A DNA stretch of 64,000 bases from an uncultured Ruminococcus sp. (GTDB taxonomy: Bacteria > Bacillota > Clostridia > Oscillospirales > Acutalibacteraceae), in contig CACWNY010000004.1 in NCBI GenBank assembly GCA_902762375.1, forward strand, positions 62,001-126,000, read 5' to 3'. The notes beneath the pieces were generated by a model, which saw only the letters and a list, made by a program, of their open reading frames with translations, did not search any database and had not been told where the DNA came from. Below are positions 25,379-41,976 of this stretch, in pieces (the stretch's first letter is position 1; the number at the start of each line of letters is the position of its first letter). Both the position numbers and the translations under genes were made by a program.

Positions 25379-27472
25379 ATGCAAAATTTGATAAATGCCT
25401 TACTGTCGGCGGACGATGATTACCTTACGGCTTTGAGTAACAAAGGCACTTTAAAGCGTGCTTACAAAGATTTACAAAGTACAGAAATTTCTGCGGAATA
25501 TCTTGACGACTGTGTTTGTGTGAGTGTGTCAGGCGAAAAATGTACGATTGTTCCCACGCTTGCCGAAAGCAAATGTACTTGTCCGTCGAGAAGTATATGT
25601 CGTCATATTATCACAGCTATTTTGTGGTTGAAAAATAATTTTTTAGAAAAAGACGAAAGCGAAAATATACCCGTTGCGGAAAATACCGTAACTGTCGAAA
25701 CCGTTTCCGAAGAAACTACTGAAATTTCTTTACCGCAAAATCTGACAGATGAACTTTCCGCTTTCCCTATTAAAGAAATTCAGAAAGCAATGAAAAAGCG
25801 GTATTACAATGCGTTTCTGGAAAAAGCCGAAAAAGGAATTTTTCCCCATATGGAAGAATTGCGAATGGTGACGGTAGATATTCCTGAAGAAAATGTGATA
25901 GTCAAACTCATTAATCCGTTGGAATATTCCGCTTGTACCTGTCACAGTAAAGAAATTTGTCGACATAAAGCTACAGCTATTTTGACATGGCAATTAAAAC
26001 ATCATATTGTCAATCTGAAAGATATTAAAATCAATGATGAAAAAACGCTCAATATAGATATTGCTGATATTCACGATACAGCACAGTATACCTATCAGTT
26101 TTTAGCGGATATTTTAAGTAACGGTCTGGTAAGAATTTCTGATGACATTGTAGAAAACACCGAAAGTATAGCAGTAATGTGTCATAATTCAAGATTGGCG
26201 AACTGCGAAAGAATGACAAGAGAAATTAAGAACCGTCTGCAAGCCTATGTACTGCGTAAACCTGAATTTAAGGCAGAAAATTTATTTTCGCTGATAATAG
26301 AAACGCTGTTGTTGTTACGCAAGATATTGCATACCAAAAATGCCGAAACATTGAATACCTGTCTTGGAGAATTTAAAAGCACCTATGAACTTTTTGACAG
26401 TATTGAAATTATTCCGATTGCGTGGCGGAAATTTTCGTCTGTTGCGGGATATAAGGGAGAAATTTATTATTTTCTCAACAAAGATACCCATTCAGAAAAC
26501 AAATATCTGACTTATTCAGATATACGCCCTGATTTTTATGAGAATACCCGAAAAAAAGGTGTATCGCAAGCCCCTTGGGGACTGTTTGGAACGGTTCGGG
26601 AACTTGCAAAATCGGAAATGCGGTTAAGATTGCCGAAACTGTCAGACGGAAAAATTTCAGCGTCCAATGAAACTTCAGCCACGATTACAAACAAAGTCAA
26701 TCTCAATCAGAAAGCCGTTTATGAAAATATCTATACCGACTTTTCTAAAATGGTATACGATATTTTTTCCAAAGAAAAAGCACCCGAAAAAGAAACCGAC
26801 TGTCTGGTAATGTTTGCGATAAAAAAATGTATCCGTTCAGAATTTGATGATATTGAACAGACGCAGAACATTGTAGTTGAAGATAACTTTAATCACACGC
26901 TTACCATAAAGGGACGCTATTCAGCGGAGAACAAAGAATTTATCAGTCAGTTGATTTTCATAGGGGAAACTATGCTGAAAAACACCAACAAATTGCTGTT
27001 CAATAAACAGTTTGTGATTTTCGGCAGTATCTATATGGAAAACGGAAAAGTTTTCATTTATCCTATGGCAGTATTTGACAATATTAAAATTCAGATGTAT
27101 AATAATGATAGTGAAATTTCACTATCATCAATTCCCATAATGAAACACAGTGATTATTTTTTTGAACTGTTTAAAGAGATAAAAGAAATGCTTTGCGATA
27201 TTATCCAGTGCGGAATTAACTCATTTGATTTGTACGGTCAGATTGACAATTACGCTTTGGAAAGTGAGCAATCGGGATTGCTTATGCTGGCGGAAAAATT
27301 AAAACAGTTAAGCGAAAGTCTGCAAGCGAAAAATCACACCTTGAACACTGACAATACAAAAATTATTCCGTTGATTTGTGATATTTACCGTTATGTCTGT
27401 ACAGGTCAGCAAAAAACAGAACTTGGTATAGCTTTAGAAAATTTGACGATAAAGGAGATTGATACACCATGA
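25379..27472 (+). CDS. SWIM zinc-finger protein
   Basis: 697 aa, cytoplasmic, no signal peptide. Two SWIM motifs of the form CxCx5CxH are visible: C66-T-C68-x5-C74-R-H76 and C186-T-C188-x5-C194-R-H196. SWIM domains bind zinc and usually nucleic acid or protein. The rest is largely helical without recognised catalytic motifs. Its stop overlaps the start of the DUF4132 gene (ATGA), so the two are coupled. SWIM proteins of this kind are genomic partners of DUF4132, MoxR AAA+, DUF5682 and VWA proteins (E. coli YehQ is one), and those partners appear at 37-42 kb. Biological role is not known. Confidence 0.82.
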   Translation: MQNLINALLSADDDYLTALSNKGTLKRAYKDLQSTEISAEYLDDCVCVSVSGEKCTIVPTLAESKCTCPSRSICRHIITAILWLKNNFLEKDESENIPVAENTVTVETVSEETTEISLPQNLTDELSAFPIKEIQKAMKKRYYNAFLEKAEKGIFPHMEELRMVTVDIPEENVIVKLINPLEYSACTCHSKEICRHKATAILTWQLKHHIVNLKDIKINDEKTLNIDIADIHDTAQYTYQFLADILSNGLVRISDDIVENTESIAVMCHNSRLANCERMTREIKNRLQAYVLRKPEFKAENLFSLIIETLLLLRKILHTKNAETLNTCLGEFKSTYELFDSIEIIPIAWRKFSSVAGYKGEIYYFLNKDTHSENKYLTYSDIRPDFYENTRKKGVSQAPWGLFGTVRELAKSEMRLRLPKLSDGKISASNETSATITNKVNLNQKAVYENIYTDFSKMVYDIFSKEKAPEKETDCLVMFAIKKCIRSEFDDIEQTQNIVVEDNFNHTLTIKGRYSAENKEFISQLIFIGETMLKNTNKLLFNKQFVIFGSIYMENGKVFIYPMAVFDNIKIQMYNNDSEISLSSIPIMKHSDYFFELFKEIKEMLCDIIQCGINSFDLYGQIDNYALESEQSGLLMLAEKLKQLSESLQAKNHTLNTDNTKIIPLICDIYRYVCTGQQKTELGIALENLTIKEIDTP

Positions 27473-30400
27473 ACTTACTTTCAGGCAACGCAGGAAAAGA
27501 TTTGGAAATGAAGCAACTGATGTTGGACTCTCTTGCACAGGGATTATCCTCGACAGAAATGGAAACGGCTGAAAAATTCTTTGATTTTTCCAAAGAAATG
27601 AATATCAGCTTACTTGACGGTTTGACATTCAGAGAAACAAAGTTTTTCCGAACAGACAAAATACAGAATGTTTTGCGGTCACTCGTTTATTATCATAAAA
27701 GTTCCGAAACTAATTTTAAATATGCTGATAGATACATATTATTTTTGGATAAGATTTTCTGTAATTATATGTTTCCACTATTTACCAATTATTTTTATTA
27801 CAGCAGTGCAAATGGACTTGATGGAGTTTTATTTGGGGAATATATTCTTCACGCTCTTGAACAGTGTTACAGTAAAGAAGAAATTGAGAAAAAGACGCTT
27901 TCATATCACATAGAAGTGACTTTTAATGCACATACCAACAATTTTTACTATTCGCCACAGTTTGTCAAAACGGCACAGGAAAGACCCGAAGTTTTACTTG
28001 ATGTCGCCGATAATTACTGTTACGGCAACAGTTCAAAGGCGAAAATGAGTGTCTATGCGTTGTTGTTGGCTTATGACAACGGCACATTATCCCGAAGTGA
28101 CATTACAAAAATGGAAGAGTATCTTTATGGCAAAATCAAAGAAGCATCGTTTTTCACCAAAAATGATGTAGCTATGACATTAGCGTTTCTGTCTGTTCGT
28201 GATAAAGAGAAACTTTCCATTAAAGAGAAAATTTATTCCGCTATTGCCCACGACAGCAACGACAAAATCAGAAAATATCTTACCGAAAACATCAAAGGTA
28301 ATGAACATAAATTTGTACGGGCATTATTTTACAAATTACCACAGGATTATCTTAGCGACCATATCGAAAAGCTGTTTTCTGTTATTGGTAACGATAAAGA
28401 AGCTATTTTCAGATGTACGAAAACAAGTATATTGCACGCTTTTATGGGAAATTACAGCAATCCAAAAACCAACGCTGATATTGTCTTGCGTTATATCTGT
28501 AAACATTATCCTGAACAGTTTGCAAAGGCAATGAAATCCGAAGATGAAATTATGGATTCTTATATTTCTCATCTATGGGATAAGCACGCTTTTCAATATT
28601 ACGGCGATATGTACGAAATAGCAGAAAAAGAAAATCCGCAGTTAATCAGTGACTATCATCTTAATTTAGATGAAGATATTTTGAACTTTGTTATTTCATC
28701 CGAAAAGAAATTGTCAGATGTTGCACAGAAAGAAATAGGAGAGTATCTCAGCAGTAAAGCAGACATTTCCGTTTTAGAACCCTATTTTAATCATCTTGCA
28801 AAAAATTATCATCACGATAATTACAATTTGGATTCCGCTAACAGACTTGTTCGTTTTTATATGAAGATAAATTCCAATTTTAAAAACCGTTACTATGCCT
28901 TGAAAGTATTGCAATATCCTGAAAAAATAGTTGCTCTTATGCGTTGGGATAATGAAAAAAATGAAGCATTTGACAATGTGGTAAAAGCATTACTCACTGA
29001 AAAAATCCCTGTGGAATATCAGTTTAATTTTTATGATATTTTCTATAACGATTACAATATTGATAAACCCAAAGTAGAAAAAATCATCACCAACGGAATG
29101 GTAGCCTATCATAAGAGTTACGGTGCAGATTATGATAATTATTGTCCTACCGGCAGTGTACTGGCAAGAAAAACCTATGTGATGTATCTCGGACAAACCA
29201 ATACAGACGGCTGTAACAATGAGAAAATTTTGGCATTATGCGGTGACACATCAAAAGAAGTCAAAAAAGCGTTGTTGTATGTGATGTCGCAGGATAAATC
29301 TTTTGAAAGTGCTATCAAAGAAATGCTCACCGCCAAAAAAATTGCGATAAGAGAATTAGCGGTAGATGTGTTAGAAAGTTGGGGTACTGACAATTACGAA
29401 GATTTGCTGAATGACGCACTCCAAAACGAAAAAAGTGTAAAATTAGCAGATAAAATCAGAGCATTGTTATCCATTGAAAAAAGTGATGAGGACGAACAAG
29501 ATGATTCTTGGGTAGAGGATTTCATTAAAGACTATCTCAGAGGTGGAAAAATCAACAAAGTGTTATGGTTGTATCAAACGCCGAACAAAGAAGTTCATTT
29601 CAAAGACGGAACAGTTTCCGATGAACGCTATTTAAAATCCACTTTGGTAAATTATGCGGATATGCAACAAAACGGAAAATTTTATGTCAATCCCTATGTA
29701 CAGTCAATGACAGAAAAACTTGTGGAAAGTGAACTAAATGCTTTTGCAGCAGATATTTTTTCCAAATGGCTTGCTGACGGGGCAGACACAAAAAAGAAAT
29801 GGGTATTGTATTATTCATCAGTCCACGGCGGAAATGCGATGGTCGATATATTGTTGAAAAATATCAAAACGTGGGCAGAGAATATGCGTGGAGCAATAGC
29901 GGCAGAGGCGGTAAAAGCGTTGGCAATGCAGGGCAGTTCGTATGCGTTGATGTCGGTTGACAATATGGCACACAAATTCAAACAGAAACAGGTAAGAAAT
30001 GCGGCGGTACAGGCTTTGGAAAATGTCGCAGAACAGTTAGGCATTACCGCCGACGAACTGGGCGACAGAATTGTCCCCGATTTGGGATTTAACGAGAATA
30101 TGGAAAGAATTTTCGATTACGGTACAAGAAAGTTCAAGGTTTATCTTACACCAAGTCTGGAACTTGAAGTATTCGATGAAAAAGACAAAAAATTAAAAAC
30201 CATTCCCGCACCGTCCAAAAAAGACGATGAAGAAACGGCTAAGCAATCCAACGCAGAATTTAAGCAGATGAAGAAGCAACTTAAAAATGTCATTTCCATA
30301 CAGAAAGCACGGCTGGAAACGGCTTTACTGGCAGACAGACGCTGGAACAAAGATGACTGGGAAAAACTTTTCGTCAAAAATCCCGTCATGCACAGTTTTG

Positions 30401-31068
30401 CGATAGGTTTAATATGGTGTGCTTACAGTACAGAGAATGATTATCTGGGAACATTTCGCTATATGGAAGATGGTTCATTCAATACAGCAGATGAAGATGA
30501 ATTTGAACTGGAAGAAAACTGTACGATAGGACTTGTACACCCGATTGATTTGGATACGGAAACGCTTGAACAGTGGAAAGAACAGCTTTCGGATTACGAA
30601 ATCACACAGCCGATTGAACAACTTGACAGAAAGGTTTACAAAGTAGATGATAAGGAGGTTGGAAAATTAGATTTGGCAAGATTTAATGGCAGAGAAGTCA
30701 ACGGAATGTCGCTTTTGGGAAGAACATCAAAGGCAGGCTGGTATAAAGGTTCAGTGCAAGACGGTGGCGGATTTAATACATTCTACCGTGAAGATGTAAC
30801 GAAAAGAATTAAAACAGGTGGAAAGGTGCAGTTAATCGGAAATGCAGTAGAACTGACTTTTGAAGGAATGTATGTTGGCGGAGAAAATGAAGATGTTAAA
30901 ATTGAAAATGCCAGATTTTACCAACCAGGAACAGTGGAAAGAGGAAGTTACTGTTACGATGAAGTTACAGACGAAAAAGCCATTGCACTGGATAAGGTTA
31001 ATCCCAGATATTTCAGTGAGATAGTCAATCAACTTGAAATGATTACCAAAGAAACGAACAGTGATTAA
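27469..31068 (+). CDS. DUF4132 (MolR/YehI family) protein with HEAT-like repeats
   Basis: A 1199-aa cytoplasmic protein, the largest in the window. The N-terminal two thirds are alpha-helical with HEAT-like stretches (for example AIAAEAVKALAMQGSSYAL). The C-terminal part from about residue 960 is the DUF4132 domain, containing RRWNKDDWEKLFVKNPVMHS, FAIGLIWCAY and the LVHPIDLDTETLEQW stretch. E. coli YehI is a relative of this family; older reports linked MolR to molybdate but no mechanism is agreed. Translationally coupled to the SWIM gene and followed 17 bases later by a nuclease-like gene. Confidence 0.8.
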   Translation: MNLLSGNAGKDLEMKQLMLDSLAQGLSSTEMETAEKFFDFSKEMNISLLDGLTFRETKFFRTDKIQNVLRSLVYYHKSSETNFKYADRYILFLDKIFCNYMFPLFTNYFYYSSANGLDGVLFGEYILHALEQCYSKEEIEKKTLSYHIEVTFNAHTNNFYYSPQFVKTAQERPEVLLDVADNYCYGNSSKAKMSVYALLLAYDNGTLSRSDITKMEEYLYGKIKEASFFTKNDVAMTLAFLSVRDKEKLSIKEKIYSAIAHDSNDKIRKYLTENIKGNEHKFVRALFYKLPQDYLSDHIEKLFSVIGNDKEAIFRCTKTSILHAFMGNYSNPKTNADIVLRYICKHYPEQFAKAMKSEDEIMDSYISHLWDKHAFQYYGDMYEIAEKENPQLISDYHLNLDEDILNFVISSEKKLSDVAQKEIGEYLSSKADISVLEPYFNHLAKNYHHDNYNLDSANRLVRFYMKINSNFKNRYYALKVLQYPEKIVALMRWDNEKNEAFDNVVKALLTEKIPVEYQFNFYDIFYNDYNIDKPKVEKIITNGMVAYHKSYGADYDNYCPTGSVLARKTYVMYLGQTNTDGCNNEKILALCGDTSKEVKKALLYVMSQDKSFESAIKEMLTAKKIAIRELAVDVLESWGTDNYEDLLNDALQNEKSVKLADKIRALLSIEKSDEDEQDDSWVEDFIKDYLRGGKINKVLWLYQTPNKEVHFKDGTVSDERYLKSTLVNYADMQQNGKFYVNPYVQSMTEKLVESELNAFAADIFSKWLADGADTKKKWVLYYSSVHGGNAMVDILLKNIKTWAENMRGAIAAEAVKALAMQGSSYALMSVDNMAHKFKQKQVRNAAVQALENVAEQLGITADELGDRIVPDLGFNENMERIFDYGTRKFKVYLTPSLELEVFDEKDKKLKTIPAPSKKDDEETAKQSNAEFKQMKKQLKNVISIQKARLETALLADRRWNKDDWEKLFVKNPVMHSFAIGLIWCAYSTENDYLGTFRYMEDGSFNTADEDEFELEENCTIGLVHPIDLDTETLEQWKEQLSDYEITQPIEQLDRKVYKVDDKEVGKLDLARFNGREVNGMSLLGRTSKAGWYKGSVQDGGGFNTFYREDVTKRIKTGGKVQLIGNAVELTFEGMYVGGENEDVKIENARFYQPGTVERGSYCYDEVTDEKAIALDKVNPRYFSEIVNQLEMITKETNSD

Positions 31069-31085
31069 CAGAAAGGAAAAACCAT

Positions 31086-31640
31086 ATGTATGATTACGAT
31101 GAGTATGTCATGAAATTCTGGGATAAATTTACGAAAGTTGTAGTCAGACCTGAGAGGGTCAGAAAGATTGAAGAACACTTACCGATTTTGCTTGCCGCCA
31201 AAAAGAAAGAAAAGTTGCATCAGATAGATGACGGTCAGGAATATAAACGACACATGACAGGCTATCTTGGAGAAGCGGCAGTTGAACAGCTTTTAGGGGT
31301 TAGAATTACCAACTGGAGTATAGGAAATTCCGTCAATTACAACACGCCTGATATACAAGGTTATCGTATAGGGATAAAGACGGCTGAAAAAGGGAATTTT
31401 CATACAATTTTCAAGCACAACGATTATCCGCAGATTATGTGTATCAGAGATATGTCTACATCTAATGAGATTATGATTTGCGGATTGGCGACATCACGGG
31501 TACTGAACACTTATCAGGACACAAGTCTGATAAAGAACCCGAAATTAGCTGCTCGTGGAGTAAAGACAGGATTTTACGGATATGAATATCTCATACCCGT
31601 AAAATCCATCAGTGATATTTCCCGCTACAGAAGACGCTGA
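31086..31640 (+). CDS. Unknown protein, possible PD-(D/E)XK nuclease fold
   Basis: 184 aa, cytoplasmic. After a helical N-terminus comes GYLGEAAVEQLLG (E63), then NYNTPDIQGYRIGIKTAEKG with D89 and K98, followed by strands. This order, Glu in a helix, PD, then xK on the next strand, resembles the PD-(D/E)XK superfamily. The second acidic residue of the motif is Gly96 here, so activity is uncertain. It follows the DUF4132 gene by 17 bases and is probably cotranscribed with it. The family assignment is inference from motif order only. Confidence 0.6.
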   Translation: MYDYDEYVMKFWDKFTKVVVRPERVRKIEEHLPILLAAKKKEKLHQIDDGQEYKRHMTGYLGEAAVEQLLGVRITNWSIGNSVNYNTPDIQGYRIGIKTAEKGNFHTIFKHNDYPQIMCIRDMSTSNEIMICGLATSRVLNTYQDTSLIKNPKLAARGVKTGFYGYEYLIPVKSISDISRYRRR

Positions 31641-37349: not shown

Positions 37350-38459
37350 ATGGAAAATTTCATCAGACCGCCTATGGAGATACGCTATGCCAAAGAATTA
37401 CAAGTTTTGAAAGAAACAGATACCGCCCGAAAACCCGAAAACTGGTATTTATCGCCGAAAGCGGTAAGGAGTTTTATTCTTGGAACGAAGAAACCCATTG
37501 ATTTTCACGGAGAAAAAGTAGAGATTAAAAAGAAGTTTTTCGGCAACGATGCTTTAGTGGAGAGGTGTATTATCACACTTACAGGAAGTCGGGGACTGAT
37601 GTTAGTTGGTGAACCTGGAACGGCAAAGACAATGCTTTCTGAACTTTTGTCGGCGGCAATCAGCGGAACAAGTACGAATACGGTTCAGGGAACAGCAGGA
37701 ACAACCGAAGATATGATTAAATACAGTTGGAACTATGCACTATTGTTGGCGAAAGGACCTGTCAAGGAAGCGTTAGTACCGTCACCGCTTTATGTAGGAA
37801 TGACGAGAGGGATTATTACACGCTTTGAAGAAATCACCCGTACACCTGCCGAAATTCAGGACAGTCTGATTTCAGTGATGAGTGATAAGGTATTGAATAT
37901 TCCCGAACTGGAGAATGACGGTCTGATATTTGCAAAATCAGGGTTTAATATTATCGGGACAGCGAATATACGGGATAAAGGTGTCAATGAGATGTCGAGT
38001 GCATTAAAGAGGCGTTTTAATTTTGAAACAGTCAATCCCGTAAAAGATGTGCGACTGGAGAAACAAATTATTCTGAATGAAGTGGAACAGAATGCTCTGT
38101 CGGATAAAATTGAAATGCCGATAGATACCAATGTTGCCGAGTTGTTGGCAGTGACTTATCATGAACTCAGGGAAGGTATTTCTGATACAGGGATTAAGAT
38201 AGACAAGCCCTCAGCGGTCATGAGTACAGCGGAGGCGGTATCCGTATTTTACCAGACGATTTCCAACGCATGGTATTATGATGAAACGGCTTTAAATCTG
38301 GCAGACCTGACGCAAAATCTTGTCAATGCGGTATGTAAAGATACCAAAGATGATTTAGAAAAACTGAAAGGTTATTTTAATACAGTGGTCAAATACAAAG
38401 CCGACAAGGTGGGGGGAATATGGAAAGATTTTTATGCAACGAGAAAATATCTGAAATAA
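37350..38459 (+). CDS. MoxR-type AAA+ ATPase
   Basis: 369 aa, cytoplasmic. Walker A is GEPGTAKT (residues 87-94), Walker B ends RFEEI near 158-162, sensor 1 is IIGTANIRD (N206) and the arginine finger is in SSALKRRF (R221/R222). MoxR ATPases remodel proteins or insert cofactors, usually with a VWA partner. That partner is encoded two genes downstream. Strong ribosome site GAGGAGG. The next gene starts 40 bases before this one ends, in another frame. E. coli YehL is the matching member of the yeh group. Confidence 0.9.
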   Translation: MENFIRPPMEIRYAKELQVLKETDTARKPENWYLSPKAVRSFILGTKKPIDFHGEKVEIKKKFFGNDALVERCIITLTGSRGLMLVGEPGTAKTMLSELLSAAISGTSTNTVQGTAGTTEDMIKYSWNYALLLAKGPVKEALVPSPLYVGMTRGIITRFEEITRTPAEIQDSLISVMSDKVLNIPELENDGLIFAKSGFNIIGTANIRDKGVNEMSSALKRRFNFETVNPVKDVRLEKQIILNEVEQNALSDKIEMPIDTNVAELLAVTYHELREGISDTGIKIDKPSAVMSTAEAVSVFYQTISNAWYYDETALNLADLTQNLVNAVCKDTKDDLEKLKGYFNTVVKYKADKVGGIWKDFYATRKYLK

Positions 38460-40825
38460 TCCCTTTCGATTATTCATCACCTGTTTTATTTTTCCCTATA
38501 AGACATCATAGTCCAGCGTGTTCGTATCATTTATTACAGGCAATCCAGAATTATCAGCCCGATTGTATTCTGGTGGAAGGACCTCAGAATGCAGAAAAAT
38601 TCATTCCTGTTCTGACTGATGAAAATACAGTTTTGCCAGTTGCATTCTACTATTTTTACAGAGACAGCGGAAAATATGTTTCAGAGGACGCAGAGGATTA
38701 TAAGTGTTATTATCCGTTTTTAGCGACTTCTCCTGAATACAATGCGTTGTGTTTTGCCGTAAGGAATGATATAGACTGTAGGTTTATTGACTTGCCTTAC
38801 GGAGAAATTCTCATTCACACTGCCGAAAACAAAGGTTTACGAAAGATTAGCGAACAACAGAATTATAATGATGACCGTTATTTATCGGAAAATCAGTTTT
38901 TTAAATCACTTTGTGAAAAAACAGGTATGCGGTCTTTTGAAGAATTTTGGGAGAACTTTTTTGAGATAGACGCTTTGTTTGAAGATACAAAGACTTTTGT
39001 AGAGAAGATGTATACTTACTGTTATCTTACCCGACAAAATACTTCTGACGATGAAAGAGAAAATGATGGTTGTCATATAAGAGAAAAATTTATGGCGGAA
39101 AATATCAGCAAGGCGATGGAAACGCATAAAAGAGTATTAGTCGTAACAGGTGGATTTCACAGTTATGGGTTATATCAGCTAATCAGTTCTGCCAAAAAGC
39201 CGAAGAAAGTCAAATTACATAAATTTGATGAAAAGACACAGAATGTTTATGCGATAGCGTATTCTTTTGAATCTGCTGATGCACTGAACGGTTATGCGTC
39301 AGGTATGCAGAATCCGTATTTTTATGACCGTGTATGGGAGAATATCAAGGCGAATACGGCAAATCAGGAAAAGATGGATAATGCTTACAAAGATACTGTT
39401 CTGGAATTACTGTTACAGTGTGCCAAAAAATCAACCAAAGAGAATTTACTGATTACGATGGCGGATATTTCTTCAGCGGTGACGATGTATGAGGGGCTTG
39501 CTTTATTACGCAATAAAAAATCGGCAGGACTTTACGAACTGTATGACAGCGTACAGAGTTGTTTCATCAAAGGAGAGGTCAATGCCTCCAGTGATATGCC
39601 CCTGAAAATATTACGCATGATTGCGACAGGAGATAAATTTGGAAAACTTTGTGAAAATGCCGAACGAGTTCCTTTGATTACCGATTTTGAAAATACCGCA
39701 AGAAAATTAAGACTGAAAATTGAAAGTGTGACAGAGCAGGAAATAGAACTGGATATTTTTTCGAAGAAAACCCATATGGAAACGAGCCGTTTTTTTTATC
39801 GTATGAATTTTCTGGAAACGGGATTTGCGGTAAGAAAAAAAGGAGCAGATATTCTCAACAATTCCGACAGAAGCCGTATCAGGGAAGTATGGAGTTATGT
39901 CAGGACGGTTCATACAGATTCCGCATTGATTGATTACAGTGTTTACGGGTCAGGGATAGAAGAAGTATGTCGTATTGTACTGAATAAAAAGATAGGAAAA
40001 GAAACAGATTGTGGTATAGCATCGAAATTATATGTAGAAAGTTTTCTGATGGGGATTGCTGTTACCGATAAATTTTCACAGAAATTGGAAGATATTCTTA
40101 TTAATGACGGCAACTTTTTTTCAGTAGGAAAAGCATTATATTATTTTAATTTACTGCGTTCCTTACAGAAAATGTACAGGGTAGAAAAGACCGTCACTGA
40201 AATTTTTTTAGTAAGATGTTTCCAGAAAATCATGATGATGTTGCCGTCGATGATAAATGTAAAACCCGAATATTCTGATGAATGTATAAAAATATGCCGT
40301 ATGCTGTACAATCTTGTGTCAACGGATTTGTTGCATGAGGAATATGAAAATCTTTTCACCACTTTCCATACAATGATACAGAATGATAACCCTGAACCTG
40401 CTTTATATGGAGCTGTTCTGGGATTGCTTTATGGGAGTGATGTCACTTACAGACAAACTATCAACCATGCTTTCAACGGTTATCTGACAGGTACAGACGA
40501 TAAGAAAAAGCAGGGGGCAGTATTTATTCGTGGATTGTTTTCCACAGCAAGAGATATTGTTCTGGTAGGCGATGAATTTATCCGTATTACTGACAGTCTA
40601 ATAAAATCGCTTGCGATGGAAGAATTTATGGAAGTTCTCCCTGAACTGCGTTTAGCATTCAGTTATTTTGCCCCTGCGGAAACAGACAGTATCGCCGAAA
40701 AAGTTGCCTTGCTTTATCATCAGAAACCGTCAGATATCCAGAAATCCTTTACAGTTGACAATGAATTATACCTCAGTGGTATGCAACTGGAAAAGGAAAT
40801 CTGTCAGTTTTTGGAGGATTTATGA
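38420..40825 (+). CDS. DUF5682 family protein
   Basis: 801 aa, cytoplasmic. The family signature is FFPIRHHSPACSYHLLQAI near the start, followed by PDCILVEGPQNAEKFIPVL. Later VLVVTGGFHSYGLYQLI fits the same TraB/ChaN-like N-terminal domain. The C-terminal half is helical. Function is unknown; the family is encoded between MoxR ATPases and VWA proteins (E. coli YehM appears equivalent). It overlaps the AAA+ gene by 40 bases and the VWA gene by 4, so the three should be made together. ATG after GGTGGGGGG. Confidence 0.85.
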   Translation: MERFLCNEKISEIIPFDYSSPVLFFPIRHHSPACSYHLLQAIQNYQPDCILVEGPQNAEKFIPVLTDENTVLPVAFYYFYRDSGKYVSEDAEDYKCYYPFLATSPEYNALCFAVRNDIDCRFIDLPYGEILIHTAENKGLRKISEQQNYNDDRYLSENQFFKSLCEKTGMRSFEEFWENFFEIDALFEDTKTFVEKMYTYCYLTRQNTSDDERENDGCHIREKFMAENISKAMETHKRVLVVTGGFHSYGLYQLISSAKKPKKVKLHKFDEKTQNVYAIAYSFESADALNGYASGMQNPYFYDRVWENIKANTANQEKMDNAYKDTVLELLLQCAKKSTKENLLITMADISSAVTMYEGLALLRNKKSAGLYELYDSVQSCFIKGEVNASSDMPLKILRMIATGDKFGKLCENAERVPLITDFENTARKLRLKIESVTEQEIELDIFSKKTHMETSRFFYRMNFLETGFAVRKKGADILNNSDRSRIREVWSYVRTVHTDSALIDYSVYGSGIEEVCRIVLNKKIGKETDCGIASKLYVESFLMGIAVTDKFSQKLEDILINDGNFFSVGKALYYFNLLRSLQKMYRVEKTVTEIFLVRCFQKIMMMLPSMINVKPEYSDECIKICRMLYNLVSTDLLHEEYENLFTTFHTMIQNDNPEPALYGAVLGLLYGSDVTYRQTINHAFNGYLTGTDDKKKQGAVFIRGLFSTARDIVLVGDEFIRITDSLIKSLAMEEFMEVLPELRLAFSYFAPAETDSIAEKVALLYHQKPSDIQKSFTVDNELYLSGMQLEKEICQFLEDL

Positions 40826-41976
40826 TGAATAATACTATCAACGACAATCAGAATCTGAACAAATGGCGGTTAATTCTGGGCAGAAATTCTGAAAACTATA
40901 TTAGTTTTCAGGGAATGTACGGTGACGGAATTTCTTTTCAGGATATGGAACAGACCCTTGATTACTTATATAGTAAGGAACTTGGTGAAGGTATTATGCA
41001 ACAAAACAATAATACCCGAACAGGAGGTATAGGCGGTTCAAATCCTTATGTAGCGGAATGGATTAATAAAGTCCGAAAGCTCTTTCCGAAAAAGACAGTT
41101 GAGATTATCGAAAAGCAGGCTCTTGATCATTTTAAAATGACAGAACTTCTTACAGATAAGGAAATCCTGAAAAAAATTGAACCCAATATGGATTTGCTCA
41201 AAACGATTTTACAGTTCAAACATTTAATGAAGAACGATGTCATTAAAGAAGCCAAACGCATTATCCAGAAAGTTGTTGACGAACTTACCGAAAAAATACA
41301 GACAGATATCCGAAAATCATTACTTGGCAAACTTAACCGCAATATGCCCTCTCATGTCAAATCCATCAGAAATCTTGATTTCAAGCGTACCATAAACCGC
41401 AATCTTAAAAACTATGATACAGAAAATCAACGGCTGATTATCAAAGATTTGTGTTTCAGTAGCAGAGTAAAACGCTTTAATAAATGGAATATCATTATTG
41501 CTGTTGATGAAAGCGGGTCTATGATGGAGAGTGTTATTTACAGTGCGGTCATGGCAGGGATTTTCGCAAAACTTCCCATGCTGGAAACCCGTCTGGTGAT
41601 TTTTGATACCAATGTTGTTGATTTAAGCGGTTATGTTGATGAACCTGTCGAAGTGCTTATGGGAATGCAGTTAGGGGGAGGTACAGATATCAACAATGCA
41701 CTTTCTTACTGTGAAAGTCTTTGTAGCAATCCTCATAATACGATATTTGTTACTGTTACCGACCTTTATGAGGGAGGAAGTATCAACAATCTTTTGCACA
41801 CTTGTTCTGACATTATCAGCAGTGGAAGTAAAATGGTTTTTCTTACCGCTTTGGACGGTGAGGCGAACCCTGTTTACGATAAGAATATCGCACAGAAACT
41901 TGCGGATATGGGAGCATTTGTAGGAGCGATGACCCCTGAACAACTTGGAGATTATATCGGCAGAATTATTTCATAA
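40822..41976 (+). CDS. VWA domain protein, MoxR partner (YehP-like)
   Basis: 384 aa, cytoplasmic with no signal peptide. An N-terminal helical region (1-220) precedes a von Willebrand A domain. The metal site is complete: D229-E-S231-G-S233, T288 in GGGTDINNA and the aspartate in TVTDLYEGG. Such proteins act with MoxR ATPases as a chaperone-like pair. The start is one of two adjacent ATGs after GGAGG. Last gene of the AAA-DUF5682-VWA block; a hairpin repeat and a convergent ATPase gene follow. Confidence 0.88.
   Translation: MMNNTINDNQNLNKWRLILGRNSENYISFQGMYGDGISFQDMEQTLDYLYSKELGEGIMQQNNNTRTGGIGGSNPYVAEWINKVRKLFPKKTVEIIEKQALDHFKMTELLTDKEILKKIEPNMDLLKTILQFKHLMKNDVIKEAKRIIQKVVDELTEKIQTDIRKSLLGKLNRNMPSHVKSIRNLDFKRTINRNLKNYDTENQRLIIKDLCFSSRVKRFNKWNIIIAVDESGSMMESVIYSAVMAGIFAKLPMLETRLVIFDTNVVDLSGYVDEPVEVLMGMQLGGGTDINNALSYCESLCSNPHNTIFVTVTDLYEGGSINNLLHTCSDIISSGSKMVFLTALDGEANPVYDKNIAQKLADMGAFVGAMTPEQLGDYIGRIIS

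What the first reader, a model, noticed from the sequence alone, without database searches (positions are those of the whole stretch)
31086..31640. Possible nuclease-fold protein attached to the SWIM-DUF4132 block
The 184-aa protein 17 bases downstream of the DUF4132 gene shows E63, P88-D89 and K98 in the order of PD-(D/E)XK nucleases, with Gly at the second acidic position. If it is a nuclease it would be the effector that the classical set lacks.
Basis: inference. Interest (0 to 1): 0.5.

Follow-up and report, generated by a model that had tools for sequence, protein, structure and literature searches.

The report
Phage-type nuclease behind DUF4132 gene
A small protein that very probably has the fold of DNA-cutting enzymes, related mostly to proteins of bacterial viruses, sits behind a large gene of unknown function in this bacterium; it is not a regular part of that gene set elsewhere.

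Summary
The ORF is real: 184 aa at 31086-31640, 17 bases after the DUF4132 stop. E63, D89 and K98 are as described and invariant in 46 of 46 distinct full-length family sequences (window's included); so is the Gly at the second acid position. Two AlphaFold models (pLDDT 89.6, 94.2) match mainly PD-(D/E)XK nucleases in the second-look alignment (NhoI Z 7.2 and 7.5), but Z stays under 8 and plain Foldseek against the PDB finds nothing with E below 1. A distant phage family (phrog_18407), reached both by weak sequence similarity and by structure, has E/D-x-K where this family has G-x-K. Of the 46 sequences 41 come from IMG/VR contigs, many beside phage replication or packaging genes; one is fused to a DnaB-like helicase; two close relatives sit in restriction-modification islands. 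Nuclease fold: supported. 'The effector that the classical set lacks': not supported in general. The gene follows DUF4132 in 2 of 17 loci examined, both in one genus; five complete MoxR-DUF5682-VWA-SWIM-DUF4132 sets lack it. It is under purifying selection (dN/dS about 0.06). Best reading: a mobile, phage-type DNA endonuclease with a degenerate motif, captured behind DUF4132. Cleavage and coupling to DUF4132 are untested.

The parts
31086..31640 (+). 184-aa PD-(D/E)XK-fold protein (E63, D89, G96-x-K98)
   Evidence: AlphaFold pLDDT 89.6; second-look fold matches; conservation
31272..31274 (+). codon of E63, in helix 52-70 of the model, invariant
   Evidence: sequence; 46/46; model
31350..31352 (+). 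codon of D89 (PD motif), invariant; in a loop of the model
31371..31379 (+). codons of G96-I97-K98, the (D/E)XK position with Gly in place of the acid
   Evidence: G 46/46, K 46/46; strand 96-101 in the model
31072..31077 (+). AAAGGA, ribosome-binding-like site 8 bases before the ATG
   Evidence: read from sequence; function inferred
27469..31068 (+). DUF4132 protein, 1199 aa
   Evidence: PF13569 E 2.6e-50
25379..27472 (+). SWIM zinc-finger protein, 697 aa, overlaps DUF4132 by 4 bases
   Evidence: PF04434 E 9e-5
37350..38459 (+). MoxR-like AAA_5 ATPase of the same set
   Evidence: PF07728 E 2.2e-32
38420..40825 (+). DUF5682 protein of the same set
   Evidence: PF18934 E 9.2e-90
40822..41976 (+). 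VWA_CoxE protein of the same set
   Evidence: PF05762 E 6.2e-41

Best explanation
The protein is a small PD-(D/E)XK-fold DNA endonuclease of a so far unnamed family known mostly from viral contigs. In phages it would work near the replication helicase and packaging genes, as a resolving or processing nuclease or in restriction-like cutting. One lineage of this bacterial genus acquired it behind the DUF4132 gene, where it is probably co-expressed and is kept by purifying selection as an accessory, probably anti-mobile-element, nuclease. Catalysis would use E63, D89 and K98 with bound metal. The missing acid at position 96 would be replaced by another conserved side chain: E/Q116, the invariant E42 or the near-invariant D48. 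Shown: ORF, conservation, predicted fold, distant link to proteins with a canonical (D/E)XK, rarity in the cellular genomes searched, purifying selection. Inferred: DNA cleavage, the replacement ligand, the accessory defence role, co-expression with DUF4132.
For: Fold: two AlphaFold models, pLDDT 89.6/pTM 0.87 and 94.2/0.90. In both second-look lists the top rows are PD-(D/E)XK enzymes by my assignment: NhoI Z 7.2 (113 aa, 3.4 A) and 7.5 (111 aa, 3.1 A), then Eco15I, NaeI, DpnI, PvuII, SPARDA nuclease, with EcoRV, Holliday-junction resolvases and MutH lower. Second route: P0001 weakly hits phrog_18407 (E 0.014); the structure search hits a Salinibacter phage protein (identified in the record as its only 167-aa CDS) that is itself phrog_18407 (E 9.5e-60). 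It and two relatives show GD..EVK, D..DVK and PD..DVK, and profile-profile comparison aligns E63, D89, G96 and K98 with E57, D79, E85 and K87 of that family (E 9.4e-5 for this one comparison, probability 58.8). Selection: dN 0.042, dS 0.745 between the window and L002 (the contig also seen in G002), like the DUF4132 tail at 0.039 and 0.656. Context: helicase, terminase, portal, DNA polymerase, RNR neighbours; helicase fusion in L036; restriction-modification islands L086 and L022.
Against: Position 96 is Gly in 46 of 46, so a normal metal ligand is missing and the protein may not cut. Foldseek against the PDB gives nothing with E below 1 for either model, and Z 7.2-7.5 lies in the range the tool warns about. 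No coordinates were available, so active-site geometry was not checked. Blocks 41-50 and 81-90, which hold E42, D48 and D89, are the least confident part of the window model (mean pLDDT 58 and 66; 81 and 81 for the same blocks of the second model). The PHROG hit is not significant alone. 'Mostly viral' rests on uneven searching: pattern scans of viral contigs against whole-genome searches confined to this phylum and one scan of genome contigs.
Confidence: 0.6

Rival explanations
1. Recruited effector: in this lineage the nuclease is the effector of the MoxR-VWA-SWIM-DUF4132 system, held back or delivered by the ATPase machinery and released on a signal.
For: 17-base spacing and a ribosome-binding-like site; same order in G000 and G002; the two genes show similar dN and dS. 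Precedent: MoxR-vWA ternary conflict systems carry exchangeable effectors; [quoted passage not shown] NaeI is among the closest folds here (Z 5.7-5.9).
Against: 2 of 17 DUF4132 loci; it is a separate gene; the MoxR and VWA half lies 6.3 kb away in the window; PADLOC gives no hit for it, for DUF4132, SWIM, DUF5682 or VWA, and only weak IetA hits (E 0.004-0.006) for the MoxR ATPase.
Confidence: 0.2
2. Inactive nuclease fold: the Gly at position 96 marks loss of catalysis and the protein is a DNA-binding, structural or regulatory (for example anti-restriction) factor.
For: G 46/46 at a metal-ligand position, where the distant relatives have E or D (5 of 5).
Against: E63, D89 and K98 stay 46/46, as do K39, E42, R55 and K160 (K160 lies inside one search pattern), which is unusual for a dead site. 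A non-acidic residue at this position is compatible with activity in NhoI (QVK) and Eco15I (QIK) (PMC11347163, passages), although Gln can bind metal and Gly cannot.
Confidence: 0.25
3. Restriction-modification relic: it is a restriction or accessory nuclease from a Type II island like those of L086 and L022, left alone behind DUF4132.
For: The closest relative outside the genus (L086, 54 percent) and L022 (42 percent) lie directly before a gene that I read as REase-like (PD..EAK; no significant Pfam match) in an island with a C5 methyltransferase and Vsr.
Against: A related island, L149, has what looks like a second C5 methyltransferase in place of this gene (by eye), so it is not needed for the island; the window's genome gives no match to the island REase at E 0.001 (without a positive control) and only a 57-residue match to the methyltransferase; several groups of relatives have phage replication or packaging genes beside them instead.
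Confidence: 0.2

Closest known systems
phrog_18407 and relatives (Salinibacter phage M8CR30-4 AUO79088, Synechococcus phage S-CBS4 gp011, Mycobacterium phage Antsirabe gp41, deposited as HNH endonuclease)
   Same: Same layout: helix with invariant E, then D, then x-K, a later conserved Gly; predicted fold match for the Salinibacter protein; profile alignment; phage replication, recombination and packaging neighbourhoods.
   Different: They keep E or D before x-K (5 of 5); this family has Gly. They show no evident counterpart of the K39/E42/D48/R55 block (the profile alignment starts at residue 52). No significant single-sequence similarity.
BisI family restriction endonucleases (NhoI, Eco15I)
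   Same: Best second-look fold match (Z 6.7-7.5); both have a non-acidic residue at the second acid position (QVK/QIK; PMC11347163, passages).
   Different: Gln can coordinate metal, Gly cannot; no sequence hit to them in the PDB search; specificity for methylated GCNGC not tested here.
NaeI-like REase effectors of MoxR-vWA ternary conflict systems (PMC7159879, passages)
   Same: A REase-fold protein encoded next to parts of a MoxR-VWA system; NaeI is among the matched folds.
   Different: There the effector domains are described as fused C-terminally to the vWA protein, with VMAP as third component; here it is a separate gene next to DUF4132. SWIM, DUF4132 and DUF5682 have 0 occurrences in that paper's main text.

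Membership tests
PD-(D/E)XK nuclease superfamily | alpha-beta core fold | tested here: met
   Two models; PD-(D/E)XK enzymes dominate both second-look lists. Caveat: Z under 8, Foldseek PDB search empty at E<1.
PD-(D/E)XK nuclease superfamily | acid in the core helix, D of PD, and K of (D/E)XK conserved | tested here: met
   E63, D89, K98 each 46/46.
PD-(D/E)XK nuclease superfamily | D or E (or N/Q) two before the lysine | tested here: not met
   Gly 46/46.
PD-(D/E)XK nuclease superfamily | metal-dependent nucleic acid cleavage | not testable with these tools
   needs an assay
phrog_18407 | significant profile match | tested here: not met
   P0001 E 0.014 against 9.5e-60 for a true member; profile-profile E 9.4e-5, probability 58.8 indicates a distant relative.
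MoxR-DUF5682-VWA-SWIM-DUF4132 set | component recurrently present in the set | tested here: not met
   absent from 15 of 17 DUF4132 loci and from the five complete contiguous sets seen.
MoxR-vWA ternary conflict systems (VMAP type) | effector fused C-terminally to vWA; VMAP component | tested here: not met
   Fusion: not met; the VWA protein is 384 aa with VWA-type Pfam matches only and the nuclease is a separate gene. VMAP itself was not searched for.
BisI family | sequence relationship to NhoI/Eco15I and methylation-dependent GCNGC cutting | tested here: inconclusive
   fold match only; no PDB sequence hit to them; activity not testable.

The most novel reading that the evidence does not exclude
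A distinct, largely viral clade of PD-(D/E)XK nucleases in which the second catalytic acid became an invariant glycine and its role moved to E/Q116 (E or Q in 46 of 46, aligned with an invariant Asp of the canonical relatives) or to the K39-E42...D48...R55 block, for which those relatives show no evident counterpart. One bacterial lineage has wired such a phage-type nuclease to a MoxR-VWA-SWIM-DUF4132 system as its effector.
Probability: 0.15. Interest if true: 0.65.

Novelty: new variant of a known kind. Interest (0 to 1): 0.42.

Why it matters
It picks out a nuclease-fold family for whose scanned members Pfam, NCBIfam, PHROGs and PADLOC give no significant match to this domain, with an unusual invariant G-x-K in place of (D/E)-x-K. 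That makes a clean test of how a PD-(D/E)XK site can lose an acid. It also corrects the idea that DUF4132 sets generally carry a nuclease, while giving one lineage in which coupling of the two can be tested directly.

Tried and rejected
Pfam, NCBIfam, PADLOC and PDB sequence searches with the window protein gave nothing. A hit in G508 (E 5.3e-5, 51 positions) was rejected: stops interrupt the frame there and the five-sequence profile gave it 11 bits. tblastn with five family members found nothing in 50,697 GenBank phage records; a sixth, with the limit at E 10, gave two rows with E 0.6-0.7 that I did not follow. Weak hits to HaeIII REase (E 0.089) and Type II REase (E 0.032) were not used as evidence. 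A search of 119 genomes for phrog_18407 found nothing, but its control genomes rang in none either, so it shows nothing. One collection scan was wasted on a pattern with a wrong gap length. Two narrow literature searches for the family returned 0 papers and show little. G030 and G088 have partial DUF4132 matches and were not examined. Foldseek against the PDB gave no match for either model; PD-(D/E)XK rows appear only in the second look. In the 12 extra DUF4132 loci the neighbourhood was scanned over the stretch fetched, about 7 kb each side where the contig allowed, less in some (L171 has 1.5 kb on the downstream side). A MutH-like spacing of D, second acid and K was recalled, not tested.

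Full report
Observation. The ORF at 31086-31640 (+) encodes 184 aa and starts 17 bases after the stop of the DUF4132 gene (27469-31068), with AAAGGA 8 bases before the ATG. The motif alone is not strong: 861 of 5000 shuffles of the protein contain a similar E..PD..K order, 169 a version with the second acid.

A family was assembled. DNA patterns from the alignment then brought further viral contigs, checked with a profile HMM: 70 domain hits, 49 distinct, 46 of them full length, 30 below 80 percent identity to each other. The 70 include repeats of one contig or locus (L003/L006/L030, L002/L004). Of the 46, 41 are from IMG/VR, the others being the window's, L002, the L005 pair and L007. In the 46, K39, E42, R55, E63, D89, G96, K98, G133 and K160 are 46/46, D48 is 45/46, position 116 is E (30) or Q (16), and P88 is 28/46. 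Some patterns contained conserved residues; in the 32 sequences from loci L065-L125, found with patterns covering only residues 132-144 or 158-166, E63, D89, G96, K98, K39, E42 and R55 are still 32/32; conservation of G133 and K160 is not free of that bias.

Cellular copies are rare where searched. Whole-genome searches gave 2 of 148 relatives, 2 of 398 genomes of the family, 3 of 398 of the phylum with a four-sequence profile (one of the three, G508, rejected) and 1 of 391 of the class with the 43-sequence profile. These samples overlap and stay within one phylum, so the viral weight of the family is partly a matter of where I looked; some IMG/VR contigs (L086, L022) may be bacterial.

Fold. 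AlphaFold2 with 43 window or fetched-locus sequences gave pLDDT 89.6 and pTM 0.87 for the window protein, and 94.2 and 0.90 for a phage-contig member, L083, with 31 sequences. The two alignments share sequences, so the models are not independent. Foldseek against the PDB found nothing with E below 1 for either. In the second look (chains preselected by Foldseek), the rows were NhoI (Z 7.2, 113 aa, 3.4 A; and Z 7.5, 111 aa, 3.1 A), Eco15I (6.9; 6.7), NaeI (5.8; 5.9), DpnI (5.5; 6.0), PvuII (5.3; 4.9), a SPARDA nuclease (4.9; 5.0), EcoRV (4.1; 4.2), archaeal Holliday-junction resolvases (3.7; 5.0) and MutH (3.7; 3.5). By my own assignment from memory 35 of 50 and 42 of 50 listed rows are PD-(D/E)XK nuclease domains; most of the rest are helical or short matches. 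Z stays under 8, so this is support and not proof. Against predicted viral structures 31 matches had E up to 0.001; those with names are uncharacterised proteins except one 'Restriction endonuclease' and one 'DUF5843 protein'.

Second route. The window protein hits phrog_18407 weakly (E 0.014, residues 38-136). One structure hit, from Salinibacter phage M8CR30-4, was identified in its record as the only 167-aa CDS and turned out to be phrog_18407 itself (E 9.5e-60). Relatives in Synechococcus phage S-CBS4 and Mycobacterium phage Antsirabe (each E 1e-3), and from these S-CBS2 and Methylophilales phage MEP301, give an alignment of five with invariant E57, D79 and K87 and E or D two before the lysine in all five (EVK, DVK, DVK, DIK, DVK). 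Profile comparison aligns E63, D89, G96 and K98 with E57, D79, E85 and K87 (E 9.4e-5 for a single comparison, probability 58.8). So the window's family appears to be a branch in which that acid became Gly. K39-E42-D48-R55 is invariant or nearly so in the window's branch and has no evident counterpart in the other; E/Q116 is aligned with an invariant Asp (D105) there. Either could supply the missing ligand. This is inference: no coordinates were available. In NhoI and Eco15I the position is Gln and the enzymes cut (PMC11347163, passages); Gly cannot chelate, so activity is open.

Context in viral contigs. Neighbours include a DnaB/primase-type helicase directly upstream and terminase and portal genes downstream (L044 group), ribonucleotide reductase, Cas4-type exonuclease and DNA polymerase (L066/L068 group), RNA polymerase (L087), and a methyltransferase cluster in 6 loci whose L033 member is N6/N4-type. 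An ATPase similar to one of four helicase-like neighbours (one of them, L122, only weakly UvsX-like) lies within 6 kb in 27 of 65 loci and in 6 of 29 non-redundant ones; contigs are short, so these are lower bounds. In L036, on a 210-kb contig, the domain is fused to a DnaB-like helicase, and in L104, L113, L115 and L118 a similar helicase is the next gene. In L086 (54 percent identity in alignment A2) and L022 (42 percent) the gene stands before a gene I read as REase-like, in an island with C5 methyltransferase and Vsr. In a related island, L149, what looks like a second C5 methyltransferase stands there instead.

Context in the window. The full set is present but split: SWIM-DUF4132 at 25379-31068 and MoxR-DUF5682-VWA at 37350-41976. 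In G183 (L133) the five genes are contiguous with no nuclease after them. In G003 of the same genus (DUF4132 89-92 percent identical, split over two contigs) unrelated sequence follows the DUF4132 stop. PF13569 occurs in 9 of 388 genomes of the phylum, 13 loci. The 12 loci other than the window's, plus G183 and G186, were scanned with the family profile: best E 0.095, no member. Five complete contiguous sets were seen (L133, L164, L165, L166, L172), all without it. In all the gene follows DUF4132 in 2 of 17 loci whose downstream side was seen (G000, G002). No viral locus held matches DUF4132 or SWIM at E 1e-3.

Selection. Between the window and L002 the gene has dN 0.042 and dS 0.745; the last 300 codons of DUF4132 have 0.039 and 0.656 (Nei-Gojobori). 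The gene is constrained, and the match suggests that it has been inherited together with DUF4132 since these two genomes split.

Literature. DUF4132 appears in 3 papers of the library, with the term in no title or abstract (listing only). MoxR-vWA ternary conflict systems with exchangeable effectors, including NaeI-like REases, are described in PMC7159879 (passages); SWIM, DUF4132 and DUF5682 have 0 occurrences in its main text. A PD-(D/E)XK family whose catalytic lysine migrated is described in PMC551604 (abstract), a precedent for moved active-site residues. PMC10910872 was seen in passages and used only as background.

Verdict. Nuclease fold: about 0.9. Active nuclease: about 0.65. Effector of the DUF4132 system: about 0.2.

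Noticed in passing
window 25379-31068 and 37350-41976: The SWIM-DUF4132 and MoxR-DUF5682-VWA halves of one set are 6.3 kb apart here but contiguous in the five complete sets seen elsewhere.
   Followed up: partly
L036:4301-5980 (-); L104:8075-9858: Family domain fused to, or followed by, a DnaB-like helicase in large phage contigs.
   Followed up: partly
L086:163-3352; L022:1612-4941; L149:4013-7060: Restriction-modification islands (C5 methyltransferase, REase-like protein without a significant Pfam match, ~100-aa protein; Vsr in the first two) in which the family gene or an apparent second methyltransferase occupies the same place.
   Followed up: partly
L164:10301-10594; L165:5168-5461; L166:10174-10452; L172:10403-10729: A ~100-aa gene follows SWIM in four complete MoxR-DUF5682-VWA-DUF4132-SWIM sets; not identified.
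   Followed up: no
L005:7054-8516: Tandem pair of diverged family members on the 603-kb Jeotgalibacillus plasmid CP009417.1, with an annotated C5 methyltransferase about 6 kb downstream.
   Followed up: no
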